Of a stretch of DNA of 64,000 nt, positions 15,023 to 46,506 are shown piece after piece. Origin of the DNA: Paraburkholderia sp. IMGN_8 (GTDB lineage: Bacteria; Pseudomonadota; Gammaproteobacteria; Burkholderiales; Burkholderiaceae); NCBI RefSeq assembly GCF_038050405.1, contig NZ_CP150901.1, forward strand, positions 2,108,001-2,172,000, written 5' to 3'. A program made the position numbers and the translations under genes. Every line of letters begins with the position of its first letter. Position 1 is the stretch's first letter. Under the pieces are notes generated by a model. It did not search any database and was not told the DNA's origin. It saw only the letters and a program-made list of their open reading frames with translations.

Positions 15023-15706
15023 CTAAACGTGACGCATCAGTTGCATCCGCACCGATTCCAGTTCGTACGGCAAACGCCGCGAAATTGGGCCCCTGCGCGG
15101 CAACTCCACGAAGCCCAAGCGTCTATACAACTCATACGCACGTGTATTGCTGACCAGCACGTCCAGCACGATCTGACGGTCGCGGTCCTCATGCGCCAAA
15201 CCGGCGCGCATCGCGTCCATGAACAGTGCGGTAAACACACCCGTGCCGCGCATACGCTCATGCGTCGCGCAATGCGCAATCAACGTCTGCGAAGACTTCG
15301 GCGCGGGTAATTCGCTTTCGAGCACCAGTCCGCGCAACAACATGCCAACGGTGCGGCGCACGCCGAAGAACAACAGCAACATCAACACTACATGCGGATC
15401 GTCGAACCAGGTCGTGCGGCCGTCGTGCACGGCGAGCACCGCGACCACCGTGCCGTCGGCGGTCACGGCAACGCGGTGGCGTCGGTACGAGAAACGGCCG
15501 TGTTTCGATGTGAACGCGAATTGCAGGAACTCGATACACGTAGCGGCGGAGTCGCCGAGAAAGAACCCGAACTCACGTACGCCCGACGCAAACATCAGCG
15601 GCGCGCAAGCCTGTGCGTCACGCGCTTGCGCCGCACGAAAACGCAGTGATGCCGGATCTTCTGCCTGATGCAGCGCGTGAGCGCGATCTGGTTGAACGGC
15701 GTACAT
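15023..15706 (-). CDS. GNAT-family acyltransferase in the capsule lipid operon
   Basis: Protein of 227 residues with a GNAT fold. The acyl-CoA-binding region is recognisable at HERMRGTGVFTALFMDAM (about residues 152-169), followed by VLDVLVSNTRAYELYRRLGF, the usual alpha4/strand pattern. A hydrophobic patch lies in the middle (VVLMLLLFFGVRR). It starts 16 bases after the oxoamine synthase stop and is therefore probably in the same operon. The substrate is unknown. Because bacterial ceramide synthase in Caulobacter is reported as a GNAT-family enzyme working with a serine palmitoyltransferase, N-acylation of the amino-ketone product of WcbT is one hypothesis; O-acetylation of the capsule is another. 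Confidence 0.8.
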   Translation of the reverse strand: MYAVQPDRAHALHQAEDPASLRFRAAQARDAQACAPLMFASGVREFGFFLGDSAATCIEFLQFAFTSKHGRFSYRRHRVAVTADGTVVAVLAVHDGRTTWFDDPHVVLMLLLFFGVRRTVGMLLRGLVLESELPAPKSSQTLIAHCATHERMRGTGVFTALFMDAMRAGLAHEDRDRQIVLDVLVSNTRAYELYRRLGFVELPRRGPISRRLPYELESVRMQLMRHV

Positions 15707-15722
15707 GGTCGAGTCTTCCTCT

Positions 15723-17060
15723 TTAGCGAGGCAGGCGCTTCAGCGCCGCAATGGTTCGGCTGATCTGCTCCGGCTCGTGCGTCGAGCAAATGAAAAACCG
15801 CAAACGTGCTGCTTTTTCTTCGACAGCCGGATAGAAGATCGGCTGCACGTTGATGCCATCGGCAAACAGCGTATTGGCCCATTGCGCGGCTTTCAGCGTG
15901 CTGCCCGTGATGATCGGCACGACTGCATAGCCCGCGCTTTTTCCGGTCTCGAGGCCTGCTGCACGCGCTTCGTCGAGAAACTGCTTGCCGCGCGCGCGTA
16001 GCAATGCGACCCGTTCGGGCTCGGCGATCAGGCGTTCGAGCGCGGCCAGCGACGCCGCCGCCAGCGCGGGCGCAAGACCGACGCTGTACAGAAAGCCTGG
16101 AGCCAGGTGCCGCAGGATGTCGATCAACGCCTGCGATCCGGCGATAAAGCCGCCGCAGCCCGCCAGCGTCTTGCTGAGCGTGCCCATCCAGATATCGACG
16201 TCGCCGCTCGCCATGCCGCACTGCTCGCGAATGCCCTTCCCGTTCGCGCCGAGCACGCCCAGCGAGTGCGCCTCGTCGACCATCAGGAACGCCGCATGCC
16301 GGCGCTTGATGTCGACGAATTGCGCCAGGTCGGGAAGATCGCCGTCCATGCTGTACAAACCTTCGATCGCGATCAGCACGCGCCGGTAGTCGTGCCGCAC
16401 ACGTGCGAGTAATGCGTCGAGCGCTTGCCAGTCGTTATGCGGAAAGCTCAGGCGTTTGGCGCCGCTCAGTTGCGCGCCCTGCACGATGCTGTTGTGCGCG
16501 AGCGAATCGTGCACGACCAGATCGCCTGGACCGAACAGCGAGCCGATCACCGTCACATTGGTCGCGTGGCCGCTCACGAATACAACGCAATCGTCCACTT
16601 CGTAAAACGACGCGAGCGCGGTCTCCAACTCGCGCTGCACCGGGCGTTCGCCTGCCACCATCCGGCTCGCCGATGCCGATGTGCCGTAGCGGTCGATCGC
16701 CTCCTTCGCGCGAGCGGAGACCTGCTCGTCGCCGGCGAGGCCGAGGTAGTTGTAGTTCGCGTAGTTCAGATATTCGACACCGCCGATCTGCGTAGTCGCG
16801 CCGGCAATGCCTTCGTGCACCCGGAAGAACGGCGACTGCACCTGGAGCTTCTCGCCCATCTGCCGCAGAATTTCGACCTGCTGATAACCCGGCATCGCCT
16901 CGAAACTGCACAGCGCGGCGCGCGACGCGTCCTGCGCCGCGCGCGTGCCGCCCGCGGGCAGCGGCGCGCCAGGCGTCTGCGCCTCTTCAGAGACGCGCTC
17001 CAGTTGCCGCATCAGCGCTTTCGCAGCGAGTTGCTGGCGGATGTGATCACCCAATCCCAT
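15723..17060 (-). CDS. wcbT: Alpha-oxoamine synthase (PLP; serine palmitoyltransferase/AONS-like), WcbT/RkpG type
   Basis: PLP enzyme of fold type I, 445 residues. It has an N-terminal extension of about 50 residues before the AONS-like core. It carries FVSGHATNVTVIGSLFG, the PLP aspartate in LMVDEAHSLGVLG (about 255-267) and the Schiff-base lysine in GTLSKTLAGCGGFIAG (about residue 295). The SLSK-x(5)-GG form resembles serine palmitoyltransferase more than biotin-pathway KAPA synthase. Family reaction: decarboxylating condensation of an acyl thioester with an amino acid. The position next to a PKS/FAS without thioesterase suggests that it takes the acyl chain off the carrier. The symbol is assigned from family and the O-P-Q-R-S-T gene order. 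Confidence 0.88.
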   Translation of the reverse strand: MGLGDHIRQQLAAKALMRQLERVSEEAQTPGAPLPAGGTRAAQDASRAALCSFEAMPGYQQVEILRQMGEKLQVQSPFFRVHEGIAGATTQIGGVEYLNYANYNYLGLAGDEQVSARAKEAIDRYGTSASASRMVAGERPVQRELETALASFYEVDDCVVFVSGHATNVTVIGSLFGPGDLVVHDSLAHNSIVQGAQLSGAKRLSFPHNDWQALDALLARVRHDYRRVLIAIEGLYSMDGDLPDLAQFVDIKRRHAAFLMVDEAHSLGVLGANGKGIREQCGMASGDVDIWMGTLSKTLAGCGGFIAGSQALIDILRHLAPGFLYSVGLAPALAAASLAALERLIAEPERVALLRARGKQFLDEARAAGLETGKSAGYAVVPIITGSTLKAAQWANTLFADGINVQPIFYPAVEEKAARLRFFICSTHEPEQISRTIAALKRLPR

Positions 17061-17091
17061 GTTGTTCTTACTACCCCGTGACGTACCGCTC

Positions 17092-18018
17092 TTAAACTAA
17101 CGATTCAGCCGGAAATTCGGCCCACTCCCACGCTTCGCGCGTGGCGAGCAATTTGGCAATAAGCCGGTAGTTCATTTCATGACTTGGCCGCAACGCAGTG
17201 ACGCGGCCGAGCAACGGCGCGCCCGCCATCGCCATGTCGCCGACCAGGTCGAGTACGCGGTGCCGCACGAATTCGTCTGGCACGCGCATGCCGCCAAGCA
17301 CGCGGTTGCCGACGATCGCCGCGGTGCAAGACAGGCGCGCGCCACGCAGAATCGGCATGCCGCGCACGTAGCCGGCGACGATCGCTGGGATCGCCCATTT
17401 GACGCGTCCGTAGGATCGCGACGGCGCGATCTCCGCCGCAAAACTCGCGGGCGTCACGGCGCCATCCCAGCGCAATTCGCCAAAGCCCTTCAGGTCGTTG
17501 CGTACCGCCATTTCGTATGCGGGCGACGGTTCGATCGAGATGCGGCGCTCGTCGCGCGCGCCCTCGGCGTCCATGATCGTCACCGGTTGCAGCACGCGAA
17601 TGAAACGCTTCGCGCGCGGCAACTCGATCCGGCCGCATGCGCGGATCGCATCGATCCACGGCTGCGCGCTGCCGTCGAGGATCGGCACCTCCTCGGCGTC
17701 GAGCTCGACCGTCGCGCGATCGATCTCGCAGGTCAGCAGCGATGCCAGCAAATGCTCGACGGTGCGGACCCGGACGCCATCACCGGCTTCGAGCATCGTG
17801 CAAAGCGGCTGGCCGCGCCGCAACGCCGGACTCACCGCCAGCTCGGCCAGCACGCGGCCGCCTTGCATTCGACGGAACACGATGCCGCGCGGGCCGTCGG
17901 CATCGCCCGGGATGATTCGTACGTTGACGGGCCGGCCCGTGTGCAGGCCGTGCCCGCTCAGTTCCAGCGGACGCGCCAGCGTGCCTTCGCGCATGCTCCA
18001 GCCTGCGGGCGCGCTCAT
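17092..18018 (-). CDS. wcbS: LpxC-like zinc amidohydrolase in the capsule lipid operon (WcbS position)
   Basis: Protein of 308 residues homologous to UDP-3-O-acyl-GlcNAc deacetylase LpxC. The zinc and catalytic positions are preserved: TVEHLLAS (first His), EFVRHRVLDLVGD (second His and Asp) and the late SHEMNYRLIAKLL (His). The otherwise conserved Lys after the second His (E. coli EFVRHK) is Arg here. ATG 18018 overlaps the PKS stop (TGATG), so it is translationally coupled. Lipid A synthesis needs one housekeeping lpxC, normally beside ftsZ, so this operon copy probably deacylates a different amide, perhaps an acylated amino lipid or sugar. The symbol rests on gene order and is less certain than the family call. 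Confidence 0.85.
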   Translation of the reverse strand: MSAPAGWSMREGTLARPLELSGHGLHTGRPVNVRIIPGDADGPRGIVFRRMQGGRVLAELAVSPALRRGQPLCTMLEAGDGVRVRTVEHLLASLLTCEIDRATVELDAEEVPILDGSAQPWIDAIRACGRIELPRAKRFIRVLQPVTIMDAEGARDERRISIEPSPAYEMAVRNDLKGFGELRWDGAVTPASFAAEIAPSRSYGRVKWAIPAIVAGYVRGMPILRGARLSCTAAIVGNRVLGGMRVPDEFVRHRVLDLVGDMAMAGAPLLGRVTALRPSHEMNYRLIAKLLATREAWEWAEFPAESLV

Positions 18019-21000
18019 CAAACAAGCTCCGTTGCAGTGGATTGCATTGGCGTCTGCGCTTCCGTTTGCGCTGACAGCGCATCGGCGACATCGGCCAGCG
18101 CGTTCGCGCCGACATCGAGCGCGTGTTGCGCGGCGACCGCCGCGACGTGCGCCGCGACACCGTTCGACTTCGCCGCGTCATCCTTCGTCTGAATCGACTC
18201 GACGATCCGTTGCGCGAGCGAATGCACCGTCGCGCCTTCGGCCATCGTCATGATCGACAGCTTGACCTGGAAGCTCTCTTCGACCGCCATCCCGAGTTCC
18301 ATGCCCATCAGCGAATCCATCCCCATGTCGAGGATCGAACGGCCGGTTTCGATTTTTTCCGGCGACATATGCAGGATGCGCGCGATCTGCGCCTGCAAGG
18401 TCTCTTCGACGAGGCGCAACGCGTCCTCGAACGGCAGGCCGAGAATCTGGTCGCGCATCTGCGCGCCGCCCTGACGCGCCGGTTCGTGGCTGCCGCGCGC
18501 ATGCATTTCTGCGTAGCGGCGCGCACGCGCCGCCGGCATGCCGAGCGACAACGCCTGCCAGTCGAGCCGCACCACGGCCTCGCCCGCATTCATCTCGACG
18601 ATCGCGCGCTCCAGCGCCGCGAGCGCTTCGGCCGACGTGATCGACAGCCCGCCAATGCGCGCTTGCAGCGCTTCACGCGTTTCGGCATTGCGCGCGAGGA
18701 AGCCGACGTCGTCCAACGGACCCCATGCCATGTAAGTGCCCGGCAAACCGGCGGCACGACGCTGCCCGACCAGCGCCTCGAGGAAGCTGTTCGCCGCCAC
18801 GTAGCTGGACTGCCCCGGATTGCCGAGGAAGGTCGTCGCCGACGAATAGACCACGAAGAAGTCGAGTTTCGCGCTGCGCGTAGCGCGGTCCAGATTCCAT
18901 GCGCCGGCCAGTTTCGGCGCGAGCACGGCGGCGAAACGCGCGTCGTCGAGATTGCGCACGAGGCCGTCGTCGATCACCATCGCCGAATGCAGGACGCCCT
19001 TGAGCGGCGTGCCGCGTGCGGCGATCGTTGCCAGCAGCATGTCGAGCGCGGCTGCATCGGTGACGTCGCATGCCGCGGTGTGCACCTGCACGCCGTGCTC
19101 TTCGCGCCAACGCGCGGCTTCTTCGGCGAGTTCCGGCGCGAGCGTGCCCGAACGGCTCGCGAGCGTCAGATGACGTGCGCCGCGCGACATCATCCAGCGC
19201 GCGGTCGCGAAGCCGAGCCCACCCGTGCCGCCGACGATCAGATACGCCGCCGCCGGATCGAGTTGCAGCGTTGCGGCAGCAGCCGTCGCGCGTGCCGGAC
19301 TCGGCGTGCCGGCCGGATACGTCACGAGGATCTTGCCGATCTGGCGCGCCTGCTGCATGTGACGGAACGCTTCCTCGACCCGCTCGGCCGGGAACGCGCG
19401 ATACGGCAACGGATGAAGCACGCCGCCCGCGAACAGTTGCATGACCTCTTCGAAAAGACGCGCCGTCAAGTCCGGCAGCGCGCTCATCAATTGATCGGCA
19501 TCGATGCCGAAATAGCTGATGTTGTTCCGGAACGGGCGCAGCCCGATGCGGCTGTTTTCGTAGAAGTCGCGTTTGCCGAGTTCGAGGAACCGGCCGAACG
19601 GACGCAGCGTGTCGATGCTGCGCACCATCGCTTCGCCAGCCAGCGAGTTGAGCACGATGTCGACACCCGCGCCCTGGGTGCGCTCCAGAATCTCATCGGC
19701 GAACGCCAGGCTGCGCGAATCGAACACGTGGTCGGCGCCGAGCAGGCGCACGAATTCGCGTTTCTCGCGGCTACCGGCCGTCGCGAAGACTTCCGCGCCC
19801 AGGTGGCGCGCGAGCTGGATCGCCGCGATCCCGACGCCGCCGGCCGCGCCGTGCACCAGCACCCGCTCGCCGCGACGCAGACGCGCCAGCTCGCACAGCG
19901 CGTAGTACGCGGTAAAGAATGTGGTCGGCACGGTGGCCGCTTCTTCGAACGTGAGACGTTCGGGCTTATGAGCGATCGCCTCCGCGTGGCTCCGCACATG
20001 GCTCGCGAACGATGCCGGCGCGAAACCGAGCACCGCATCGCCCGGCGCAAAACGCTGCACGTCGCGACCCACGCGCGTCACGCGCCCGGACAGTTCCATG
20101 CCGATCGTCGCGCCGGCAAAGCCGTTTTCGACGGCTTCATCCGACAGCAAGCCCATCGCGTACATCACGTCGCGGAAATTCAGGCCGGTCGCGACCGGCT
20201 CGATTTCCACTTCGTCAGAAGCGAGCTCCCGCTGCGGCAGCGCGAACCATTCGAGGTTGCGCAACGAACCCGGCGACGCAAAACCAAGCACCGCTGCCTC
20301 GTTCTGCGCACGTACCGGAGAAGCCGGTGCGCTGCGCAGTGCCGCGCTCGCCGCGGGCAACATGCGCGGCACGTAGCGGCCGTGCGGCGTGAGCAATACT
20401 TCTTCTTCGCTGTCGACGGCGAGCAGTTCTCGCGCCAGCACTGCGCTCGCGTCGCGGCAAGCCGGCGATACATCGATCAGACGGCACGACAATTCGGGAT
20501 GTTCGTTAGCCAGCACGCGGCCAAGCCCCCACATCGCGGCTTGTTCCGGGCGCAATGCGGCGGCATCGGCAAACGGCGTGACGAACGGCGCGCCACCGCG
20601 CGTGACGATCCACAACTGCGGCTGCATCACGCCGGCCACCGCCGCGAGATCGCGCACGAGTTGCGCGAGCGCGAGCGTGGTCTGCTGCTGGGCGCTCATC
20701 ACATCTGCGCCGTTTGCATTGGCGGGCAAGGCCTGATCCGGCGCGATGAAAACCACGTGATGCAGGCGCCCCGCCGGTGCGGCCAACTTGCTCATGTCGT
20801 GACGCAACGCTTGGAGCGTGCTGCTCGACGTGGTGTGACCGGCAGCTTGCAGTGCGGCGACCAAGGTGTCGTCCGCAGTCGCATCGGACTGTGCCGCGTA
20901 CAGCAGGGACCAATGCATTAACGGGGTCTGCGCTTCAGCCTCATTCATGGTCGTCGCAAGCACATACGGCTCACGCGCGACGATCAGCGTCGGTGCGCCT

Positions 21001-24000
21001 TCGAGATCGAGACCCTGCTCGGTATGCCGCGTGACGTTTTCGAATCCGGCTTCTTCGAGATGTTTCGTCAGCGCCGTCGGCGACAGCCACGCAGCGCAGC
21101 GCGCATTTGCATGAACGGCATCGGCGTCGAGATCGAACACGATGTCCGCAAAGCGGCTATTGCGCGGCTCGGCAATCACGACCAGCGCGCCCGGCGCAAG
21201 CCAATCGCGCAGCGCGGCGAGCAGCGCGCGCGGATCGCTCTGTGCGGCCAGCACGTGACTTGCCACCACGACGTCATACCGCTCGCCCGCCTCGATGCCG
21301 GACAGGCGCGGCGTATCGCCGAACTCGATGTTCGCGGTGCGGATGGCGGGATGTTCGCTCGCATCGAAACCGCTCAACTGCTCATGCGTGCCGGCAATCG
21401 TGTAGTCGCAACGCGACACCGGCACATGGATCGCGAGCGGTTGCAGCACGTCGCTCAACGGCGAATCGAGTTCGAGCACGCGCAAGCGGCGCGGCTCGCT
21501 CCATCCTTCGATCACGCGATGCAGACATGCGCCGGTCAACGCATTGACGTGCGCCCACGTCGGCGAAGCTTCAAAGAAGTGCTCGACCAGACTGCTGCGC
21601 GACGGCGGCAGGATCCGCGCACCGCTCACTTCGCCGCGCAACACGGCAGGCAGCGCTGCGCCGCAATGCGCGAGCAGCGTCAGTTCAGCTACGTGCGCGG
21701 GCGACTGCGAGAGCAGATCACGCCACAAGTCGTCGATGCCCGGCAGATTTTCGCAGGCCGCGGCGTCGCGCACGAGACGTGTGTCGTCGCGCCGTGCGAG
21801 GCCGTCTTCGACCGCGATCTGTGCGAGGCGCGCGAGCAACGCGGGATGTGCGCAGTCCGGCAGCGACGGTTGCGCGAAGACGTTCAATGCGTCGAGTGCA
21901 TTCAGCGCGTAGGCGCTGGCGAGGACGTCGAGGAGCGGCAGCATTTCCGTCAGATGCGACTGTCTGCGCGGCAGGTCTTCTTGCGTCATCAGCGTCGAGA
22001 CGGCGTCTTCCAGCAACACGGCCGGTTCCGGCAACGTGCGAGCGTCGAGTTCGCCGGCAAGCGGCTTCGCTTCGACGATATACGCGTAACGTGCGGGCGC
22101 ATGCTGACGCCGGCCCATCAGGTCGACGCGGCGGAAGCGGCACGCGCCGAGACGCGCGACGATCGCGCCGTGCGCGTCGGCGAATTCGAACGATGCGACG
22201 ACCGAATGCGGGCTGCGCCGTTCGATCCGCGCGACCACATAGCGAATCGCGTCACCGCGCAGATAGTCGATACGGCCGAGCTGCACGGGCACGTAGGCGG
22301 CGTGTTCGATTTCAGCCGGATCTTCAGCCTGGCCGGGCGCGGCGAGCAACGCGAAGAGCGGATGAAAGCCGCTGTCCATCAACGCCGGATGAAGCGCATA
22401 CGCGTTCAGCGCGGCGTCGGATTGCGCGAGCACGCTCGGGACTTCTACTTCGGCTAGCGCGATGTCAGCGGCGGCGGCGACATGCACCGAGCGCACCCAC
22501 TGGAACGCCGGACCGTAGCTCAAGCCAATCGCGGTGGTGTTCGCATACAGCGTGTCGCCCGGCATGGCCGGTTGCGCGAGCAGGCCTGCGAGCGTCGCCG
22601 CAGGCACCGTGCTTGAACCGGCCTGCGCCGCCAGCGCACAACCGCTTGCCAGCAGACGGCCGGTGACGTTGAGCGACCACGCTTCGTCGGACATGCGGTC
22701 GCGCGTTTCGATCGTAAAGCTTGATGTGCGCACATCGACTGTGAAGCGGAACAGCTTCGAATGCTGCGGCTGGAACACGACCGGCAGACGAATTTCGAGG
22801 TTCTCCACCGCACAGCTATCGGTGCCGAAATGCTCGCGCGCCGCGGCAAGCGCCATCTCGACATAGCCCGCGCCCGGGAACGCCACGCCGTCATCGACGA
22901 CGTGATCGGCCAGCATCGGCAACCCGGCCGGGTCAAGCTGATTTTCCCAGGCCAGCGCGTGTTCGCGCAGACGGTAACCGAGCAGCGGATGTTCGCGGCG
23001 GCGATTGACGAGGTTGTACGCCTCGGGGGTCGGGCCGAGCCAATAGTGTTCGTGCTGCCACGGATAGGACGGCAGCGCCACGCGTGCGCCGGCCGGTGCA
23101 AAGCGTTCGGCATCCACGCGCGCGCCGTTCGCGAGCGCCGCGTAGATCGCGTGATGCAGCATCTGCGCGCTATCGTGATTGCGCTTGAGCGTCGCCAGCG
23201 AACGGCCGCTCACGTGGGCCTCGTCGAGCGTTTGCGTGACGTAGCTGCGCAGGATCGAATGCGGGCCGACTTCGAGGAACAGACGCACGCCGGACTGGGC
23301 GACCTGCGCGATGGCGTCGCCGAAACGGACCGGCTCGCGAATATTGCGCCACCAGTAGTGAGCATCGAGCGCGGTGCCCGCGAGTTCCGCGCCGGTGACC
23401 GTCGAAACGAAGCTGCACGCTCCGGCGTTCGGTACGAGATCGGCGAGGCCGTGAAGCACGGTCGGCTCGATCGGATCCATCTGACGGCTGTGGAACGCGT
23501 AGTCGAGTTCCAGCATCTGGAAAAAACGGCCGCTTTCCTTCACCGCAGCTTCGAGAACCTGCAACGCGGCAAGCGGGCCGGCCAGCGTGACCGCCTGCGG
23601 ACTGTTCACGCCCGCGATTTCCACCGCGCCGTCCACGCCGACTTGCGCCATCAGCGCACGCATCGCGGCTTCGCCGAGACCGGCCGCGGCCATCCGGCCC
23701 ATGCCGCGCGTGCTTGCCTGAGCGCGACTGCGGATCTTGATCACGTGTACGGCCTGCTTCAGCGTCAACGCGCCCGCAGCCCATGCCGCGGCGACCTCGC
23801 CGACGCTGTGGCCGAGGCACACGTCATAGCCGACGCCGCGCGCTTCGATGACGCGCACCACGCCGACCTGAAGCGCGAACAGCAATGGCTGCGCATGCTC
23901 GGTAGCTTCCAGCCATTCAGCGCTCACTCCGTCGCGCAACACCTCGACCAGCGACGGACTGCCGTCCGCGCGCCACAGCGCGTCGAGTTCGTCGAGCGCG

Positions 24001-25679
24001 GCACGGAACACCGGTTCTTGCGCGAACAATTGCTTGCCCATCCCGGCCCACTGCGAACCGTTGCCGGAGAACACCAGCGCGAGACGCGTATCGTCGCCCG
24101 GGGTGTCGCCTTGTACGAGTGCCGGTTCCGTTTGATCCGGCGTCGGCGCGGCAAGCGCGGCGAGTGTCGCACGCGCTTCGGTTTCCGTCGACGGCGCGAC
24201 GATCGCACGATACTTCAGCCACTGACGGCGATGCGCCGCGTTCGACGCGAGCGTGCTCCACGGCGTGCCGTTGTCCAGCATCGACAGATAGCGTGCCGCC
24301 AGCGCCGGCAACGCGGCTGCGGTGCGAGTCGACAGCACCAGCGGCGGCAGTGCGACGCCGTTTTCGACTTGTGTGGTAACGACGGGCGCAGGCGCTTCAC
24401 GCAACACGACGTGCGCGTTCGTCCCGCCAAAGCCGAACGAATTCACGCCGATCACCAAGGGCTCCGCGCCGCTGTCGAGCGGCGTCAGGCGATCCACAAC
24501 CCGCAGTCGTCCACCAACAAAATCGATCGCCGGATTGGGCGTTTCGAAGTGCAGTGTCTTCGGCACGGCGCGATGCTTCAGGCACAGAATCGCCTTCATC
24601 AGCCCAGCCATACCGGAAGCGGTTTCGAGGTGGCCCACGTTGGTTTTCACCGAGCCGATCAACAGCGGCCGATCGACCGGCCGGCCCGCCGACGCGGCTT
24701 CCATCAACGCGCGCGCTTCGATCGGATCGCCGACGGCCGTGCCCGTGCCGTGCGCCTCGACATATGCGAGCGAGCGCGGATCGACACCCGCGCGCTTGTA
24801 GACCGTGCGCAGCAACGCCGCTTGCGTGGCCGCGCCCGGCACGCTGATGCCGCCTTGCGAGTAACCGTCCGAATTGACGCCGGAACCGGCGATCACCGCG
24901 TGGATCGTGTCGCCTTCGGCCAACGCACGCTCGAGCGTTTTAAGCATCACCAACGCGCCGCCTTCCGAACGGACATAGCCGTCGCCGGTGGCGTCGAACG
25001 CGCGGCAGCGTCCGCGTGGCGACAGCATCGACGCTTTCGAAAACGTCACGAAGCCGAACGGATGCAGCAGCAGATTGACGCCGCCCGCGAGCGCCATTTC
25101 GGCGTCGCCAGATTGCAGTGCCTGACACGCCTGATGCAAAGCCACCAGCGACGACGAACACGCGGTATCCACCGAAACGCTCGGTCCGCGCAAGTCGAAC
25201 AGATACGACAGGCGGTTCGACGCGATGCTGAGCGTGTTGCCTGTGGCCGAATATGGATCGACCGCGTTCAGGTCGTCGACGAAACGATTGCCGTAGTCCG
25301 GACTCGCGACGCCCACATAAACCGCGCAATTGCTGCCTTCCATGTCGCGTGGACGCACGCCCGCGTCTTCGAAGGTCTCCCATGCGAGTTCGAGCAACAG
25401 GCGTTGCTGCGGATCCATCTGCTGCGCTTCGCGCGGCGAAATGCCGAAGAAAGCCGCGTCGAAACCGGCTACGTCGTCGAGCACGCCGGCTGAGAACGTG
25501 TAGCTCTTGCCCGCTTCGCGCTTCAACGGGTGCTGATAAAACTCCGTGCCGAAGCGTTCAGCCGGTACTTGCGTCACCGCATCTTTTTCGTCGCGCAGCA
25601 GCGCCCAGAAATCGTCGGGGCTCTCAACATGGCCGGGGAAGCGGCATGCCATCCCCACAATTGCAATCTGTTTGGTCAT
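18018..25679 (-). CDS. wcbR: Multidomain fully reducing FAS/PKS (KS-AT-DH-psiMT-ER-KR-ACP), WcbR/RkpA type
   Basis: Giant type I synthase of 2553 residues. Domain order: KS (1-430; DTACSSS Cys near 173, HGTGTAVGDP, KTNVGHLE), AT (about 530-830; GHSVGE near 625, YAFHS motif suggesting malonyl), DH (about 890-1170; DHVVDDGVAFPG), a methyltransferase-like region (about 1200-1560) whose SAM loop is degenerate (VLELDSPLSDVL), ER (about 1800-2120; VLVHGAAGGVG), KR (about 2140-2330; VGGTGGLG, SSYVAANSF) and one ACP (about 2400-2480; GMDSLMGMEL). No thioesterase or reductase follows the ACP, so another protein must release the chain. All reductive domains look intact, predicting a saturated chain. 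Start ATG 25679 overlaps the upstream stop. The equivalent RkpA is needed for K-antigen in Sinorhizobium. Confidence 0.92.
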   Translation of the reverse strand: MTKQIAIVGMACRFPGHVESPDDFWALLRDEKDAVTQVPAERFGTEFYQHPLKREAGKSYTFSAGVLDDVAGFDAAFFGISPREAQQMDPQQRLLLELAWETFEDAGVRPRDMEGSNCAVYVGVASPDYGNRFVDDLNAVDPYSATGNTLSIASNRLSYLFDLRGPSVSVDTACSSSLVALHQACQALQSGDAEMALAGGVNLLLHPFGFVTFSKASMLSPRGRCRAFDATGDGYVRSEGGALVMLKTLERALAEGDTIHAVIAGSGVNSDGYSQGGISVPGAATQAALLRTVYKRAGVDPRSLAYVEAHGTGTAVGDPIEARALMEAASAGRPVDRPLLIGSVKTNVGHLETASGMAGLMKAILCLKHRAVPKTLHFETPNPAIDFVGGRLRVVDRLTPLDSGAEPLVIGVNSFGFGGTNAHVVLREAPAPVVTTQVENGVALPPLVLSTRTAAALPALAARYLSMLDNGTPWSTLASNAAHRRQWLKYRAIVAPSTETEARATLAALAAPTPDQTEPALVQGDTPGDDTRLALVFSGNGSQWAGMGKQLFAQEPVFRAALDELDALWRADGSPSLVEVLRDGVSAEWLEATEHAQPLLFALQVGVVRVIEARGVGYDVCLGHSVGEVAAAWAAGALTLKQAVHVIKIRSRAQASTRGMGRMAAAGLGEAAMRALMAQVGVDGAVEIAGVNSPQAVTLAGPLAALQVLEAAVKESGRFFQMLELDYAFHSRQMDPIEPTVLHGLADLVPNAGACSFVSTVTGAELAGTALDAHYWWRNIREPVRFGDAIAQVAQSGVRLFLEVGPHSILRSYVTQTLDEAHVSGRSLATLKRNHDSAQMLHHAIYAALANGARVDAERFAPAGARVALPSYPWQHEHYWLGPTPEAYNLVNRRREHPLLGYRLREHALAWENQLDPAGLPMLADHVVDDGVAFPGAGYVEMALAAAREHFGTDSCAVENLEIRLPVVFQPQHSKLFRFTVDVRTSSFTIETRDRMSDEAWSLNVTGRLLASGCALAAQAGSSTVPAATLAGLLAQPAMPGDTLYANTTAIGLSYGPAFQWVRSVHVAAAADIALAEVEVPSVLAQSDAALNAYALHPALMDSGFHPLFALLAAPGQAEDPAEIEHAAYVPVQLGRIDYLRGDAIRYVVARIERRSPHSVVASFEFADAHGAIVARLGACRFRRVDLMGRRQHAPARYAYIVEAKPLAGELDARTLPEPAVLLEDAVSTLMTQEDLPRRQSHLTEMLPLLDVLASAYALNALDALNVFAQPSLPDCAHPALLARLAQIAVEDGLARRDDTRLVRDAAACENLPGIDDLWRDLLSQSPAHVAELTLLAHCGAALPAVLRGEVSGARILPPSRSSLVEHFFEASPTWAHVNALTGACLHRVIEGWSEPRRLRVLELDSPLSDVLQPLAIHVPVSRCDYTIAGTHEQLSGFDASEHPAIRTANIEFGDTPRLSGIEAGERYDVVVASHVLAAQSDPRALLAALRDWLAPGALVVIAEPRNSRFADIVFDLDADAVHANARCAAWLSPTALTKHLEEAGFENVTRHTEQGLDLEGAPTLIVAREPYVLATTMNEAEAQTPLMHWSLLYAAQSDATADDTLVAALQAAGHTTSSSTLQALRHDMSKLAAPAGRLHHVVFIAPDQALPANANGADVMSAQQQTTLALAQLVRDLAAVAGVMQPQLWIVTRGGAPFVTPFADAAALRPEQAAMWGLGRVLANEHPELSCRLIDVSPACRDASAVLARELLAVDSEEEVLLTPHGRYVPRMLPAASAALRSAPASPVRAQNEAAVLGFASPGSLRNLEWFALPQRELASDEVEIEPVATGLNFRDVMYAMGLLSDEAVENGFAGATIGMELSGRVTRVGRDVQRFAPGDAVLGFAPASFASHVRSHAEAIAHKPERLTFEEAATVPTTFFTAYYALCELARLRRGERVLVHGAAGGVGIAAIQLARHLGAEVFATAGSREKREFVRLLGADHVFDSRSLAFADEILERTQGAGVDIVLNSLAGEAMVRSIDTLRPFGRFLELGKRDFYENSRIGLRPFRNNISYFGIDADQLMSALPDLTARLFEEVMQLFAGGVLHPLPYRAFPAERVEEAFRHMQQARQIGKILVTYPAGTPSPARATAAAATLQLDPAAAYLIVGGTGGLGFATARWMMSRGARHLTLASRSGTLAPELAEEAARWREEHGVQVHTAACDVTDAAALDMLLATIAARGTPLKGVLHSAMVIDDGLVRNLDDARFAAVLAPKLAGAWNLDRATRSAKLDFFVVYSSATTFLGNPGQSSYVAANSFLEALVGQRRAAGLPGTYMAWGPLDDVGFLARNAETREALQARIGGLSITSAEALAALERAIVEMNAGEAVVRLDWQALSLGMPAARARRYAEMHARGSHEPARQGGAQMRDQILGLPFEDALRLVEETLQAQIARILHMSPEKIETGRSILDMGMDSLMGMELGMAVEESFQVKLSIMTMAEGATVHSLAQRIVESIQTKDDAAKSNGVAAHVAAVAAQHALDVGANALADVADALSAQTEAQTPMQSTATELV

Positions 25680-27211
25680 CGTTCTGTGATTGGGTGCAGC
25701 GTGTGTGCGGCCTTATCACGCGGCGTGGCTGGTTCAAGAGTTCGAACGAGGGCCACGCCGAGCTGTTCGGCACACAGATCTTTTCGGGTAGCAGGCGCGT
25801 CGCCGTAATTGCGCCAGATAAAGTAGTCACTGCGAGCCGGTTCGTAACCGAGATCGACGAACACGTGCGGTAGCGCCGGCACGTGATCGCCATAAAAGCA
25901 GAGCACCGTATCGCGGCGCCGCGCGCGCAATGCTGCGAGCAGGCGGCCGAGCATTGCATCGGCGTTGGCGAGGTGGCGCAGATAGACAGTCAGATCGCGC
26001 CAGCGTGCATCGTCGCCGAGCGCGTGGAAGGCGGCACCCTCGCCTGCCTCGACCGGCTCCAGATGCAAGGGACCGTGGTTTTCCATCGTCATCGAGAAGA
26101 TAAAGGCCGGCTTGTCGCGCGGTTCGTCGAGCGCCTTGATGATCGAATCGGCCACCGCCAGATCGGACACGTATGGACCCGCGCGCGGCGCGTCGGCGAA
26201 CGCGGCGATGTCGATAAAGCGGTCGATCTGCAAATGTTTGAAGGCGCGCTTTCGGCCGAAGAAATCCGCATAGTACGGATGGATCGCCAGCGTTTGATAA
26301 TCGCCGCGCTTGAACCACGACGCCAGTGAGTTGCACGCTCGCCGCACGAACGCGTACGGATAGAAACGCGCATAGCCGAGTTGCGTCTGATCGATGCCGG
26401 TCAGCACCGCAAACTCGGTGCGCATCGTATTGGCGCCCCATGCGGGCACCGTCAGTTCGCCGTGCTGGACCGACTCGCGGCGCGCGGTGTCGAAGTTGCG
26501 CAGGATCGCGCGATCGATCGACGCATCAAGACGCCGCGCGTCGAAGAACGACTCGCTCTGGATCAGGATCACATCGGGCGCGGTTTGCGGCGCGCCGCTC
26601 GCGAACGGACCGGCCGCCAAGGCGTCGCACAATTGACGCGCGGTGGCAGGCTTCATGCCGTTCAGCAGGTAGGCGACGAACACTGAGAAGAAGCCGTGAC
26701 GCTTCTGATCGTCGACGGGGTTCAGCGTGAGCGGCAAGCGCGCGGCAAACACGTAGGCCGCGGCAAGGCAGGCACCGGCAGCGATCACGAGCTCTCCAAC
26801 AGGCCTTTGAGCAAGGGACTTGTCCGTGACAAAAACGACGATCACCACCGCGATGCCAATGACGATCGCCACCACCGTGCCTATGCTGAGAAACGGCAAG
26901 TAGAGCCGCGGATGCGCGAAAAGCTGGCTGAAAAGACTCAGATCGGTGAAGACGAACGGTTCTTGCAGCGATGCGTGCTTGGCGTTGCTCACGCCTGCCA
27001 GCAGCGCGACCAGCGCGATCGCGACAAAGGCGGAAAACCTGACGCGCCCCGTGAGCAGCAGCACGCACACACAGATGAACACGATAGCGGCGACGTGCAA
27101 CGCCAAGGCGAGCGGCGAGCGGCGCAACCACGCGCGCGGCAGCGCAAGCGCTTCAGGCAGAAGCGCGAGGCCGGCTGCGGCCACGAAGCTGAGTGCGAAC
27201 GTCGCCTCCAC
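25676..27211 (-). CDS. wcbQ: Membrane sulfatase/LtaS-superfamily protein, WcbQ/RkpI type
   Basis: Protein of 511 residues with about five N-terminal membrane helices (residues 1-165) and a C-terminal alkaline phosphatase-superfamily domain, probably periplasmic. It shows DVILIQSESFFDARRL (metal site), GANTMRTEFAVLTG with the probable Thr nucleophile, MTMENHGP and FYGDHVP. This architecture is that of lipoteichoic acid synthase and phosphoethanolamine/phosphoglycerol transferases rather than of a soluble sulfatase. It may add or remove a phospho-group on the capsule lipid or linker (inference). The start lies one base from the WcbP stop and its stop overlaps the PKS start (ATGA). Confidence 0.85.
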   Translation of the reverse strand: MEATFALSFVAAAGLALLPEALALPRAWLRRSPLALALHVAAIVFICVCVLLLTGRVRFSAFVAIALVALLAGVSNAKHASLQEPFVFTDLSLFSQLFAHPRLYLPFLSIGTVVAIVIGIAVVIVVFVTDKSLAQRPVGELVIAAGACLAAAYVFAARLPLTLNPVDDQKRHGFFSVFVAYLLNGMKPATARQLCDALAAGPFASGAPQTAPDVILIQSESFFDARRLDASIDRAILRNFDTARRESVQHGELTVPAWGANTMRTEFAVLTGIDQTQLGYARFYPYAFVRRACNSLASWFKRGDYQTLAIHPYYADFFGRKRAFKHLQIDRFIDIAAFADAPRAGPYVSDLAVADSIIKALDEPRDKPAFIFSMTMENHGPLHLEPVEAGEGAAFHALGDDARWRDLTVYLRHLANADAMLGRLLAALRARRRDTVLCFYGDHVPALPHVFVDLGYEPARSDYFIWRNYGDAPATRKDLCAEQLGVALVRTLEPATPRDKAAHTLHPITER

Positions 27212-27997
27212 TCAGCGCTCCTCACGCGGCAAATAGGACAGACCGCCGAGAATCGCATCCGCCAATGTTGCGGGCAGCAACGGCAACAGGCGCATGCCGA
27301 AAGCGAGCAAGTTCGGGAATGCGATTTCCGCGCGGCCCGCCTTCAGTTTGCGCCGGATGTGTTGCGCGGCTTTATCCGCCGACCATAGAAAGGGCTTGTC
27401 GCCCGGGAAGACGTCGCTCATGGCCGTCTTGACGAAACCCGGCAACACGATCGACATCCGCACGCCGTCGCGCGATAGAACCGGACGCACCGAGTCGCCG
27501 TAGGCTTTGATCGCCGCCTTGCTTGCGCAGTAGGCCGGCGAAATCGCCATGCCGCGTAATGCGGCGAGCGAACTGACCAAAGCGATTTGTCCGCTCCGGC
27601 GCGGACGCATGCGCGCGACTACCGGCAGGACCGCGTGCATTGCGCCGTAGAAATTGGTATCGACGATGGCCGCCGTGCGTTCCAGTTCTTCCCAGTCGTG
27701 CGCGGATGCGAGGGTGCTGGCTGCGCCGGCGTTGGCGATCAGCAGGTCGATTGGGTGGGCGTCATCGAATTGGTGCAGCCAGGATTGCATGGCTGCGGCG
27801 TCGCGCACGTCGAGTTGTGCGGTGTCTACCTTTGCGCCTTTCGCGCGACAGGCTTGCGCTGAAGATTCGAGGCGTTCGACATCCCGGCCGATGAGGCCGA
27901 GTACTACGCCGGGTGCCGCATACGCCAGCGCAAGCGCGCGGCCGAGGCCCGCGCTGGCGCCGGTGATGACGATGTGGCGCGGCGCGGCGCTAGACAT
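27212..27997 (-). CDS. wcbP: SDR-family ketoreductase, WcbP/RkpH type
   Basis: Short-chain dehydrogenase of 261 residues with VITGASAGLGRAL near the N-terminus, NAGA near residue 90, SSLA (catalytic Ser) and PAYCASKAAIKAYG (Tyr/Lys). The C-terminus is hydrophobic (LLPLLPATLADAILGGLSYL), as in membrane-associated SDRs such as 3-ketodihydrosphingosine reductase. Beside an SPT-like synthase, the natural guess is reduction of a 3-keto amino lipid; reduction of a sugar is the alternative. It abuts wcbQ and its start overlaps the end of wcbO by eight bases. Confidence 0.86.
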   Translation of the reverse strand: MSSAAPRHIVITGASAGLGRALALAYAAPGVVLGLIGRDVERLESSAQACRAKGAKVDTAQLDVRDAAAMQSWLHQFDDAHPIDLLIANAGAASTLASAHDWEELERTAAIVDTNFYGAMHAVLPVVARMRPRRSGQIALVSSLAALRGMAISPAYCASKAAIKAYGDSVRPVLSRDGVRMSIVLPGFVKTAMSDVFPGDKPFLWSADKAAQHIRRKLKAGRAEIAFPNLLAFGMRLLPLLPATLADAILGGLSYLPREER

Positions 27998-29198
27998 GCG
28001 CGGCCGCCTCGAGACGCTGCACCGCGCCGGCTGTCGCCATCGCGATGCCGGTGCGGGTGTAGAAGTCGCCGTTGATCTGAGTGTGGTGGACGACGTAGTC
28101 GAGAAAGGCCTTGTAGAGATGCATGTCCGGCTGTTCGCCGTGCCGCCAGAAATCGTCGAGCGAGCCTTGCCACGTCAATCCCGGCATGCTGTAGATCGCC
28201 GTGCCGAGCGCGATCAGCGGACGACGGTGATGCAGCGCCGACAAGCCGACCGTGCTGTTGACCACCACGGCGCCGCGCGCGTGATCGAGAAGCGTCGGCA
28301 GGTGGCCCGCGTCAATGAAACGCAGACGCTCAGCAATGCCGAGTTCGCGCGCCAGTTGCTCCGCGTGACGACGATAGTCGATCAGGCCGGTGTCGAGGGG
28401 ATGGTTTTTGATGACGAGCCAGGTCCCGGCAGGCGCGTGGCGTGCAAATGAGGTCAGCACCTTTGCGATCGCGTCACGCACGCTGTCGAACGGCGAATGG
28501 ACGACGATCTGCGCATCCGAATTCAGCTGCAGCGGAAAGATGTAATACGCATGACCCGCATCGAGCAGATCGCGAGTGACCTTGTCGGCATCGCGATGGT
28601 GCTGACGCTGACGCAATGCGCGGGCAGCCAGGCCTGAGTATTCGAAGAAACCGTTTCTCGGACGATGGCTGCGGTAATGCGGAAAGCGAGAGGCGAAAAG
28701 CGTGTTGGCGCTGCGATAGCGGATGTCGTGAAACGCGCGTTCGTAGAGGTTATAGCCAGTGGGCTGCCCTGCAGGGCTTGCTGGCGTAAAACGGCGCTGA
28801 TCGATATACCAGGCGGGGTCCCGTGGTAATTGCGAGCGGCCATTTACGCCGTGCTTTTCCAGCGTCAGCCAATGCGGGCGGACGTAACCTTCTTCGAAAA
28901 CATGGACGCGCAAGCCATTAGTTTGCGCAACCGGATGCATATGACGGTGAATTTCGCGGCAGTCGCCGAACATTATTACGTCGGTAAATCCGCCAGTTTT
29001 CACTCGATTGACATACCAATCTGTTAGTTCGCTTGACTGATCGCGGAAATTCCACGAATCGCCATTACCCGCGTAGGCCAGATCGCCACCGCAGTAATTA
29101 ACTCGACGTACAGCATGGCCGCGCTCGCGCAGTGCGATGGCAAGGCGGCTAAAGAACGGTGAAGCCGTGCCTTGCAGGGCGAGAAAGGAGCGGTGCAT
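27990..29198 (-). CDS. wcbO: KpsS-like capsule Kdo-linker transferase, WcbO/RkpJ type
   Basis: Protein of 402 residues of the KpsS/LipB capsule polysaccharide family, which adds beta-Kdo to a lipid acceptor at the inner face of the inner membrane. Recognisable segments are FLALQGTASPFFSRLA at the start, FEEGYVRPHWLTLEKHGVN (about residues 100-118), WLVIKNHPLDTGL and the late VVNSTVGLSALHHRRPL / MPGLTWQG motif. It is the first gene of the six-gene minus-strand unit and so nearest the divergent promoter region. Its partner KpsC-like protein is encoded at 49068-51116. Presence of both indicates a poly-Kdo linker. Confidence 0.9.
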   Translation of the reverse strand: MHRSFLALQGTASPFFSRLAIALRERGHAVRRVNYCGGDLAYAGNGDSWNFRDQSSELTDWYVNRVKTGGFTDVIMFGDCREIHRHMHPVAQTNGLRVHVFEEGYVRPHWLTLEKHGVNGRSQLPRDPAWYIDQRRFTPASPAGQPTGYNLYERAFHDIRYRSANTLFASRFPHYRSHRPRNGFFEYSGLAARALRQRQHHRDADKVTRDLLDAGHAYYIFPLQLNSDAQIVVHSPFDSVRDAIAKVLTSFARHAPAGTWLVIKNHPLDTGLIDYRRHAEQLARELGIAERLRFIDAGHLPTLLDHARGAVVVNSTVGLSALHHRRPLIALGTAIYSMPGLTWQGSLDDFWRHGEQPDMHLYKAFLDYVVHHTQINGDFYTRTGIAMATAGAVQRLEAAAHV

Positions 29199-29528: not shown

Positions 29529-29646
29529 ACTCGTATCGGCACACGTAAAACGTTTGCGCCGACCTTGGCTACCAGATTCTGCGGGCATTTCCGCACTTCC
29601 CTTTGATGCGCGTGCGACATCAAGGGAATCGAAAGAATTATTCAGT

Positions 29647-30813: not shown

Positions 30814-30825
30814 GGATCGGAAACT

Positions 30826-33358: not shown

Positions 33359-33435
33359 TACCACTCCATGTCTAAAGTGTGAAGCTGTTCTTGTCGCTGC
33401 CTCCTAAAAATGTAAGCACGAGGCACGGCAGGATT

Positions 33436-33744: not shown

Positions 33745-33955
33745 AGGTATTCTCGCCGCGCTTCTTCGCGGTTGCGGCGTCTATTGCCGAAGCCGTGCAA
33801 TGAGGGCACCGCCGGCGCGTCCGCACGCGCCGGCACCTCCAGCGACAAGCACATCTCATCAAGGCCCACCCAGCCGTCAAAACCGATAATCGCGGGTGGC
33901 TGTGGCGAAGCAATACGGCTGGAAACTGACCGGCGCGAATCAACCGCGCATCGGG

Positions 33956-34252: not shown

Positions 34253-34359
34253 TTAACTGCAGATTCTGGCAATGACGGTGCAATCAGAAAGCAATTGATC
34301 TTGCGTAGAAAATTATCAGACAACCGGCAGCAAAGGGACAGTCGTTTACGACAATACGC

Positions 34360-39343: not shown

Positions 39344-39370
39344 AATAAAAAACGCAAGGCACATAAGAAA

Positions 39371-45393: not shown

Positions 45394-46506
<1,113 letters not shown>

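What the first reader, a model, noticed from the sequence alone, without database searches (positions are those of the whole stretch)
15023..29198. Capsule-linked assembly line that looks like a dedicated sphingoid/ceramide-like lipid pathway
Seven overlapping or adjacent minus-strand genes encode KpsS-like transferase, SDR, LtaS-like membrane protein, reducing FAS/PKS, LpxC-like deacetylase, SPT-like oxoamine synthase and a GNAT acyltransferase. FAS/PKS + SPT-type PLP enzyme + ketoreductase + GNAT N-acyltransferase is the chemistry set for a 2-amino-1,3-diol or ceramide-like lipid. The known rkpAGHIJ (Sinorhizobium) and wcbO-T (B. pseudomallei group) loci are needed for capsule, but I know of no established structure for the lipid they make; classical group 2 capsules use lyso-phosphatidylglycerol instead. 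The idea that these capsules carry a purpose-made amino lipid anchor or carrier is inference.
Basis: partly seen in the sequence, partly recalled or inferred. Interest (0 to 1): 0.87.

Follow-up and report, generated by a model that had tools for sequence, protein, structure and literature searches.

The report
Sphingolipid cassette inside a capsule locus
A run of seven bacterial genes inside a capsule locus most likely makes a sphingosine-like lipid with a phosphoglycerol head, which would serve as the membrane handle on which the sugar capsule is built; if true, it would answer an old question about what lipid these capsules sit on.

Summary
The seven genes are present and intact. They form the known wcbO-T/rkpAGHIJ-type cassette in an ABC-transporter capsule locus of a Paraburkholderia-like genome. 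The 2-amino-1,3-diol idea is well supported: a 2025 paper shows that such a PKS and oxoamine synthase in Pseudomonas fluorescens MYb115 (SgaAB) make very long sphinganines and probably phosphoglycerol-sphinganines; SgaB prefers serine. The words 'capsul' and 'LTA synthase' do not occur in its text. Here, four Pseudomonas loci matching its sgaA primer exactly carry an LtaS-type phosphoglycerol transferase, SDR, KpsS and KpsC beside the pair. In 299 genomes, 11 of 11 with a strong match to this synthase encode KpsC/KpsS-family proteins (26 of 288 others); 8 of 8 strong LtaS-type matches adjoin KpsS or KpsC. Cassette KpsS separates from E. coli KpsS in a tree. Best reading: the cassette makes sphinganine-phosphoglycerol, a lyso-PG look-alike, as capsule acceptor or anchor. 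The ceramide (N-acyl) part is unsupported; LpxC-like and GNAT genes remain unexplained. Main objections: LtaS enzymes act outside the membrane, KpsS inside; three of the 11 genomes lack LtaS; some lineages have LtaS without Kdo transferases.

The parts
27990..29198 (-). KpsS/WcbO/RkpJ-type beta-Kdo transferase, taken to add the first Kdo to the lipid acceptor
   Evidence: PF05159 E 1e-113; falls with 32 other cassette KpsS rows on one side of a 97/96 branch, KpsS of E. coli CFT073 and UTI89 on the other
27212..27997 (-). SDR (WcbP/RkpH/SgaC type), inferred 3-ketosphinganine reductase
   Evidence: PF00106 E 3e-38; an SDR adjoins the LtaS-like gene in 28 of 33 well-bounded loci; proposed role of SgaC in PMC12134224
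25676..27211 (-). LtaS-family membrane protein (WcbQ/RkpI), inferred glycerol-phosphate transferase from phosphatidylglycerol to sphinganine
   Evidence: PF00884 E 3e-42; nearest solved relative GacH phosphoglycerol transferase E 4e-29; E220, T262, H379, D442, H443 present in 37 of 37 aligned sequences, window included
18018..25679 (-). Iterative type I PKS/FAS (WcbR/RkpA/SgaA): KS-AT-DH-(degenerate MT)-ER-KR-ACP, no thioesterase
   Evidence: no match to the SAM motif I pattern in 63 of 63 aligned PKS, window included; 97 residues after the ACP serine
17092..18021 (-). LpxC-like metal-dependent deacylase, second copy besides the genome's own lpxC; role unknown
   Evidence: PF03331 E 2e-65, NF009666 over cut-off; a higher-scoring LpxC at G000:C1:500689-501504; 14 seen among the loci searched, window included, all Burkholderiaceae
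15723..17060 (-). PLP-dependent alpha-oxoamine synthase (WcbT/RkpG/SgaB), inferred acyl-ACP:serine decarboxylative condensation
   Evidence: 58-59% identical to the synthases of Pseudomonas loci L016 and L172, whose PKS start matches the MYb115 sgaA primer
15023..15706 (-). GNAT acyltransferase, inferred to act on the lipid amine; donor unknown
   Evidence: PF00583 E 5e-6; model pLDDT 86, nearest folds acetyltransferases; present in 12 of 14 LpxC-bearing loci
29554..30813 (+). KpsE-type inner-membrane polysaccharide co-polymerase (by position and relative)
   Evidence: no Pfam hit; 64% identical to a P. dioscoreae protein with a weak, below-cut-off Wzz match
30826..31617 (+). KpsM-type ABC permease
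   Evidence: PF01061
31614..32267 (+). KpsT-type ABC ATPase
   Evidence: PF00005
46603..47769 (-). KpsD/Wza-type outer-membrane exporter
   Evidence: PF02563, SLBB
49068..51116 (+). KpsC-type Kdo transferase
   Evidence: PF05159, three stretches; 39% identical over 485 residues to a Pseudomonas KpsC-type protein
13435..14865 (-). ManC-type GDP-mannose pyrophosphorylase/phosphomannose isomerase, downstream of the GNAT

Best explanation
The cassette is a dedicated route to a single-chain sphingoid lipid on which the capsule is built. The PKS makes a straight, fully reduced, probably very long acyl chain on its own ACP. The oxoamine synthase releases it by decarboxylative condensation with L-serine to 3-ketosphinganine, and the SDR reduces this to sphinganine. 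The LtaS-type enzyme moves glycerol phosphate from phosphatidylglycerol onto the C1 hydroxyl, giving sphinganine-phosphoglycerol: one chain, one phosphate, one free glycerol, i.e. a lyso-PG look-alike. KpsS of a cassette-specific kind adds the first Kdo to that glycerol, KpsC extends the linker, the polymer is added and KpsMT-E-D exports it. In Burkholderiaceae the LpxC-like and GNAT proteins edit the amine. Reported in print for homologues: serine-preferring SgaB activity, sphinganines, probable PG-sphingolipids, and loss or strong reduction of capsule in rkp or wcbR mutants. Inferred: the SDR and LtaS steps, the lipid as Kdo acceptor, and amine editing.
For: Sphinganines C24-C28 depend on PKS and AOS in MYb115, which also makes lipids 154 Da heavier, read as phosphoglycerol sphingolipids; SgaB uses Ser, virtually not Ala or Gly. 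The published MYb115 sgaA primer matches the PKS start of Pseudomonas loci L016, L169, L172 and L174 with 0 mismatches; each has PKS, AOS, then PhyH, KpsC, GNAT (weak match), LtaS, SDR, KpsS, KpsC. The tag distance SgaA to SgaC in MYb115 (RS19805 to RS19775) equals PKS to SDR in annotated plasmid L011. PF05159 in 11 of 11 strong-AOS genomes against 26 of 288 others, p 2e-11; strong LtaS-type matches (298 bits or more; 15 weaker ones not counted) in 8 genomes, all among these 11, within 1 kb of a KpsS or KpsC match in 8 of 8. Cassette KpsS rows on one side of a branch, 98/98 and 97/96. LtaS nearest to phosphoglycerol transferase GacH, catalytic residues kept in 37 of 37. KpsS starts on (lyso-)PG in E. 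coli (PMC7694667 passages). A B. pseudomallei wcbR mutation greatly reduces capsule (PMC3961207 passage). A Cobetia paper already calls wcbPQRT lipid-carrier synthesis (PMC11766843 passages).
Against: LtaS-family active sites face the periplasm (recalled; five hydrophobic segments in the window protein fit this, but only four in L016 and L013), KpsS/KpsC are cytoplasmic, so the lipid would have to flip back. Three of the 11 AOS genomes (G169, G264, G267) have cassette-side KpsS but no LtaS, and so do 9 of the 25 PF05159-bearing genomes among the 48 named ones searched, several of them MAGs. Five of the 48 (G605, G610, G615, G617, G620) have PKS, AOS, LtaS and SDR but no PF05159 match at E 1e-40, so the lipid is not tied to Kdo. 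The PG-sphingolipid structure rests on mass, and its amount did not rise with induced sphinganine. The KpsS branch could reflect shared descent of whole loci rather than acceptor specificity. The Cobetia authors say WcbQ moves glycerol phosphate onto the polysaccharide.
Confidence: 0.55

Rival explanations
1. Anchor exchange. KpsS/KpsC build the Kdo linker on ordinary lyso-PG in the cytoplasm. After export, the periplasmic LtaS-type enzyme attacks the phosphodiester and transfers polymer-glycerol-phosphate onto sphinganine, so the capsule ends on a sphingolipid.
For: Fits the expected periplasmic site of LtaS-type enzymes (and recalled); LtaS-type gene adjacent to KpsS or KpsC in 8 of 8 sampled genomes with a strong match; free PG-sphinganine would be the by-product with PG as donor.
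Against: Does not explain why cassette KpsS separates from E. coli KpsS. LtaS also occurs where KpsS/KpsC were not found.
Confidence: 0.15
2. The lipid is a free sphingolipid (membrane lipid or natural product) and sits in the capsule locus for joint regulation or as a transport or assembly aid, not covalently on the polymer.
For: MYb115 sphinganines act on a host as free lipids; genomes of 11 Planctomycetota and 2 cyanobacterial loci with the synthase lack LtaS and PF05159 at the thresholds used, 0 of 13 each; G014 has two copies without PF05159.
Against: 11 of 11 against 26 of 288 co-occurrence with the Kdo-transferase family; capsule loss or reduction in rkp and wcb mutants (PMC4881576 and PMC3961207 passages).
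Confidence: 0.18
3. Capsule on ordinary lyso-PG; the cassette makes a capsule modification, with WcbQ adding glycerol phosphate to the polysaccharide.
For: Statement about WcbQ in PMC11766843; the solved relatives GacH and LtaS are polymer-related glycerol-phosphate enzymes (acceptors recalled).
Against: An SDR adjoins the LtaS gene in 28 of 33 loci, and the pair stays with PKS/AOS genomes where Kdo transferases were not found and other glycosyltransferases are alongside.
Confidence: 0.07
4. Ceramide route: GNAT N-acylates the sphingoid base with a long chain and the capsule hangs on a ceramide.
For: A GNAT gene follows the synthase in 12 of 14 LpxC-bearing Burkholderiaceae loci; a hydrophobic helix pair at about 96-130 of the model could meet a lipid (inference).
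Against: Nearest folds are acetyltransferases; no N-acyl form reported for the characterised relative in the sections read; my profile finds no such GNAT beside the cassette outside Burkholderiaceae and Pseudomonas (a diverged one could be missed); a deacylase-type LpxC beside it points the other way (inference).
Confidence: 0.05

Closest known systems
wcbO-T of the Burkholderia CPS I locus and rkpAGHIJ (rkp-1) of Sinorhizobium
   Same: PKS, oxoamine synthase, SDR, LtaS-like and KpsS genes with a capsule system (matching of gene names to genes is partly recalled); a B. pseudomallei GNAT 66% identical to the window's appears in a protein search listing
   Different: No LpxC-like or GNAT match in the S. 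meliloti stretch read. The lipid product is not established in the texts seen.
SgaABC of Pseudomonas fluorescens MYb115 (PMC12134224)
   Same: PKS + serine-preferring oxoamine synthase + SDR; Pseudomonas synthases beside the sgaA primer site are 58-59% identical to the window's
   Different: Described as a secondary-metabolite cluster; 'capsul' and 'LTA synthase' each occur 0 times in its text. No LpxC-like match in the Pseudomonas stretches.
Group 2 capsules on (lyso-)PG-Kdo (E. coli)
   Same: KpsC, KpsS, KpsM, KpsT, KpsE, KpsD set
   Different: The kps loci of CFT073 and UTI89 show no PKS, LtaS or WcbT-type gene in their annotation, and their KpsS lies on the other side of the tree
Canonical bacterial sphingolipid pathway (SPT with dedicated ACP and acyl-ACP/CoA synthetase; bCerS, CerR)
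   Same: Oxoamine synthase related to solved SPTs
   Different: Chain comes from a PKS with built-in ACP; the window synthase separates from E. coli SPT (weak tree)
GacH, LtaS and LtaP phosphoglycerol transferases
   Same: Domain and catalytic residues
   Different: Acceptor inferred here to be sphinganine

Membership tests
wcbO-T / rkp-1 capsule lipid cassette | PKS (KS-AT-DH-ER-KR-ACP), oxoamine synthase, SDR, LtaS-like and KpsS-like genes together | tested here: met
wcbO-T / rkp-1 capsule lipid cassette | Lies in an ABC-transporter capsule locus | tested here: met
wcbO-T / rkp-1 capsule lipid cassette | Needed for capsule | not testable with these tools
   only literature on relatives
SgaABC-type PKS sphingolipid cluster | Synthase in the same clade as SgaB | tested here: met
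   58-59% identity to synthases of loci carrying the sgaA primer site; separate from four SPT- or KBL-like rows, 99/99, though one cassette row (L093) has an implausibly long branch. MYb115's own protein was not available, so this rests on its close Pseudomonas relatives.
SgaABC-type PKS sphingolipid cluster | Serine condensation, sphinganine product | not testable with these tools
   no enzyme assay or lipid data for the window organism
Group 2 capsule on lyso-PG | KpsC and KpsS family Kdo transferases present | tested here: met
Group 2 capsule on lyso-PG | KpsS groups with that of lyso-PG users | tested here: not met
   97/96 branch separates it from KpsS of CFT073 and UTI89; that these strains (K2, K1, recalled) use lyso-PG is recalled, K5 is
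Group 2 capsule on lyso-PG | Acyl-glycerol at the reducing end | not testable with these tools
   needs chemistry
Phosphoglycerol transferase (LtaS family) | Metal ligands and catalytic threonine | tested here: met
   roles of the residues recalled from LtaS
Phosphoglycerol transferase (LtaS family) | Five TM segments with outside catalytic domain | tested here: inconclusive
   5 segments in window and L009, 4 in L016 and L013 by hydropathy
LpxC | Zinc and catalytic residues | tested here: met
   aligned with 4mdt; E-H, H-x3-D and H motifs kept in 14 of 14; residue roles recalled
LpxC | Acts on UDP-3-O-acyl-GlcNAc as the lipid A enzyme | not testable with these tools
   a better LpxC match is elsewhere in the genome, so this copy is probably not that enzyme
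Canonical sphingolipid pathway | Separate ACP and acyl-CoA synthetase co-occurring with SPT (PMC9386255, abstract start seen, passages) | tested here: not met
   none within the cassette; two AMP-binding enzymes lie at 4.4-7.7 kb beyond other genes
Bacterial ceramide synthase (bCerS) | Homology of the GNAT gene to bCerS | not tested
   no bCerS sequence was obtained

The most novel reading that the evidence does not exclude
A large class of ABC-exported capsules in proteobacteria (11 of the 37 KpsC/KpsS-bearing genomes in my sample of 299) is primed on a purpose-made sphingolipid, sphinganine-1-phosphoglycerol, read by its own lineage of KpsS. The PG-sphingolipids of P. fluorescens MYb115 would then be capsule primers rather than a stand-alone natural product, and the same lipid module (PKS, AOS, SDR, LtaS-type) would also serve other glycosyltransferase systems in Nitrosomonas and others.
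Probability: 0.42. Interest if true: 0.86.

Novelty: new variant of a known kind. Interest (0 to 1): 0.7.

Why it matters
The lipid made by rkp-1 and wcb genes has been an open question since rkpGHIJ were described (1997, title seen only). Joining the 2025 sphinganine chemistry to the capsule genes turns it into a direct test: is the capsule's reducing end a serine-derived sphingoid phosphoglycerol? If yes, there are two parallel acceptor lipids for Kdo-primed capsules, sphingolipid synthesis has a structural role in many bacteria not counted as sphingolipid makers, and published phenotypes of such lipid clusters need re-reading as possible capsule phenotypes.

Tried and rejected
Considered and rejected or left open. 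(1) Methyl-branched lipid: Pfam sees a methyltransferase remnant in the PKS, but my SAM motif I pattern matches in 0 of 63 aligned PKS, so I read it as degenerate. (2) N-acylation: the GNAT model gave acetyltransferases as neighbours; undecided. (3) A strict rule 'synthase always with LtaS and KpsS': false; see the Against line. (4) An LtaS substitute in the LtaS-less genomes G169, G264 and G267: only five nearby ORFs were scanned (of ten; the other five were from G014); two are a response regulator and a symporter, three have no Pfam family, so a substitute is not excluded. (5) AOS family tree: of eleven loci offered as 'other' rows only four gave a usable domain, and one cassette row has a branch of 9.24; used only weakly. 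(6) PF00155 in the own genome (54 matches) is too broad; with A1 at E 1e-120 the window synthase is the only match there (5 of 29 candidates scored).

Limits and rows dropped. Searches scored at most 5 candidates a genome, at most 7. Of the 26 PF05159 genomes without a strong synthase, 14 were re-examined with A1. The KpsS tree used named-locus proteins over 300 bits and 330 aa only; the second tree left out four rows (two long branches, two duplicates) and added two E. coli rows. PF05159 was searched in 48 of the 80 named genomes, not in the other 32. The sets overlap: G264 and L088 share a contig and KpsS rows; G187 appears to be L078's genome (same LtaS place). The 33 loci include L012 and L151, whose KpsS rows are almost identical.

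Papers. A link between SgaAB-type sphinganine and capsule or Kdo was not found (open-licence PMC only, no bioRxiv). Kiss 1997, Muller 2009 and Fraysse 2005 were not held; only their titles in reference lists were seen.
Full report
What is there. The seven minus-strand genes named in the finding are real, intact and at the stated coordinates. They sit in an ABC-transporter capsule locus with KpsM, KpsT, KpsE-, KpsD- and KpsC-type genes. The genome is 9.1 Mb in two contigs. The best plasmid-collection hit, on a Paraburkholderia dioscoreae plasmid, has the same seven genes in the same order, a synthase 92.6% identical to that of the window, and a ManC-type gene next door.

The cassette is known by name. 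It corresponds to wcbO-T and rkpAGHIJ (gene-by-gene naming partly recalled). A review says that rkp-1 products take part in making and modifying a lipid carrier for K antigen (PMC4881576, passages). A paper on Cobetia calls wcbPQRT lipid-carrier synthesis, says little is known of the proteins, and reports WcbQ as an LTA-synthase-like enzyme that puts glycerol phosphate on the polysaccharide (PMC11766843, passages). A wcbR mutation in B. pseudomallei greatly reduces capsule (PMC3961207, passage).

The chemistry. The PKS has the KS, AT, DH, ER, KR and ACP motifs; the AT reads DYAFHS in 57 of 63 aligned PKS; my SAM motif I pattern is found in the methyltransferase remnant of 0 of 63; and 97 residues follow the ACP serine, too few for a thioesterase. 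This suits a straight, fully reduced chain taken off by another enzyme. Peters et al. 2025 (PMC12134224; abstract, sections 7, 8 and 15 and passages read) show that a homologous pair in P. fluorescens MYb115 makes C24, C26 and C28 sphinganines; the strain also makes lipids 154 Da heavier that they read as phosphoglycerol sphingolipids; SgaB condenses acyl-CoA with L-serine, with virtually exclusive preference over alanine and glycine; an SDR, SgaC, is proposed as ketosphinganine reductase. They count 6,101 homologous clusters, dominantly in Burkholderia. The words 'capsul' and 'LTA synthase' each occur 0 times in their text, and the parts read name no enzyme for the phosphoglycerol head.

Link to the capsule. 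The published sgaA primer matches the start of the PKS in Pseudomonas putida 31753 (L016) with no mismatch, and in three of thirteen further Pseudomonas stretches (L169, L172, L174); in L172 the other two primer sites match with one and three mismatches. All four have the order PKS, AOS, then on the other strand PhyH, KpsC, GNAT (weak matches, 48-60 bits), LtaS, SDR, KpsS, KpsC; the first KpsC of L016 is in two frames. In a genus sample 15 of 298 genomes hold the synthase at E 1e-150. Of the 13 stretches newly fetched, 12 contain LtaS (L168 partial, L175 cut by the end) and 10 contain SDR and KpsS; L180 has none of these. In MYb115 the tags of SgaA and SgaC are six steps apart, as PKS and SDR are in the annotated plasmid L011. 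I conclude, without having seen MYb115's genes, that the characterised sphinganine cluster most likely is a capsule cassette of this kind.

Co-occurrence. In one set of 299 genomes drawn across the phylum, 17 match the synthase alignment at E 1e-120, 11 of them at 620 bits or more. The KpsC/KpsS family PF05159 is in 37 of 299 at E 1e-15 and in 11 of these 11; of the other six matching genomes (G014, G171 and four of 407-445 bits) one has it (Fisher p 2e-11 for 11 of 11 against 26 of 288). Best synthase scores in 14 of the 26 PF05159 genomes without the cassette are at most 284 bits. LtaS of the cassette type (298 bits or more; the next is 229, and 15 weaker matches were not counted) is in 8 of 299, all within the 11, and lies within 1 kb of a KpsS or KpsC match in all 8. 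In G097 the synthase is on another large contig, so LtaS keeps company with the Kdo transferases even when parted from the PKS.

KpsS lineage. A tree of 35 KpsS rows from cassette genomes (12 from the phylum sample, 23 from loci chosen for their synthase) and 23 rows from genomes without the cassette places each group on one side of a branch (98/98). With KpsS of E. coli CFT073 and UTI89 added and four rows left out, the branch has 97/96 support, and both E. coli rows fall with the non-cassette side (33 against 23 rows). KpsS adds the first Kdo to (lyso-)PG in E. coli (PMC7694667, passages), so a separate lineage is what a different acceptor would predict. Caveats: 15 of the 23 non-cassette rows in the first tree and 14 of 23 in the second are one family, the tree has no outgroup, and loci may be inherited whole.

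LtaS-type enzyme. Its nearest solved relatives are GacH phosphoglycerol transferase (E 4e-29), then an LTA primase and LtaS. The residues E220, T262, H379, D442 and H443 are present in 37 of 37 aligned sequences; their roles are recalled from LtaS. An SDR adjoins it in 28 of 33 well-bounded loci, and KpsS or KpsC lies within 6 kb in 28 of 33. In five of 48 named genomes (G605, G610, G615, G617, G620) the LtaS-type gene and SDR occur with the synthase but without PF05159 at E 1e-40; in G605, G615 and G617 they adjoin a conserved GT2-like protein and a conserved 361-aa glycosyltransferase-like protein. This favours LtaS belonging to the lipid module and acting on the lipid rather than on one polymer.

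Breadth. Of 80 named loci, 32 have LtaS in the stretch and 21 of the other 48 genomes have it elsewhere. PF05159 is in 25 of those 48: 16 have both, 9 PF05159 only, 5 LtaS only, 18 neither. The 18 include all 11 Planctomycetota and both cyanobacteria, so the PKS/AOS pair has other uses too.

LpxC-like and GNAT genes. The LpxC-like gene occurs in 14 loci, window included, all Burkholderiaceae, always between PKS and AOS; zinc-site and catalytic motifs are kept and the genome has a better LpxC match elsewhere. GNAT follows the synthase in 12 of these 14. Its model (pLDDT 86) resembles acetyltransferases, several of which act on amines.

Objections. LtaS enzymes act on the outer face of the inner membrane (recalled), KpsS on the inner. 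Either the sphingoid lipid flips back, or the polymer is moved onto sphinganine after export; the KpsS tree favours the first, topology the second. Cassette-side KpsS without LtaS exists (G169, G264, G267, and L084, L088, L094 among the named loci; L088 is the same genome as G264). The PG-sphingolipid assignment in print rests on mass.

Verdict. Observation confirmed. The sphingoid-base reading is strongly supported by a characterised homologue, the capsule-anchor reading moderately by co-occurrence and the KpsS lineage, the ceramide reading not. The locus is a member of a known cassette; the capsule-on-sphingolipid mechanism would be a new variant of the Kdo-primed capsule.

Noticed in passing
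L186 45254-49305 (E. coli CFT073): Annotated serine palmitoyltransferase operon (fatty acyl-AMP ligase, epimerase, ACP, spt) lies about 16 kb beyond the group 2 capsule locus, past type II secretion and glc genes; whether the neighbourhood means anything is unknown.
   Followed up: no
L181 8630-13505, L182 9411-14253, L185 3603-8458: LtaS-type gene and SDR beside a conserved GT2-like and a conserved 361-aa glycosyltransferase-like gene in Nitrosomonas europaea, Leeia oryzae and an Accumulibacter MAG, without KpsC/KpsS found.
   Followed up: partly
L084, L088: Two Stappiaceae cassettes have two neighbouring KpsS genes and no LtaS-type gene found in the genome.
   Followed up: partly
L142, L143 (G014): Two PKS-AOS pairs in one genome without PF05159, one near a Wzz-like and an ABC ATPase gene, the other near a glycosyltransferase, APS kinase and sulfotransferase genes.
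   Followed up: partly
L015, L144: Synthase fused to a PKS (Planktothrix) or in a 2622-aa open frame (G171), in stretches without recognised capsule genes.
   Followed up: no
L011 21240-22283, L016 12764-13807: A phytanoyl-CoA dioxygenase family gene lies between AOS and KpsC in many of the Pseudomonas cassettes, with weaker matches in some Halomonadaceae stretches; it could hydroxylate the lipid.
   Followed up: no
window 36536-39343: 935-aa protein with an FkbM methyltransferase domain and a DUF4214 domain among the glycosyltransferase genes.
   Followed up: no
window 30001-48000: G+C is 0.53-0.56 in this part against 0.64-0.67 in the lipid cassette (16001-28000), suggesting different histories.
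   Followed up: no
window 34360-35610: A third, weak Capsule_synth-family protein (E 1e-4) besides KpsS and KpsC.
   Followed up: no
L168 13700-15900: In one Pseudomonas locus the LtaS match is short and runs into a KpsC match, with no SDR or KpsS hit in the stretch, as if by deletion.
   Followed up: no
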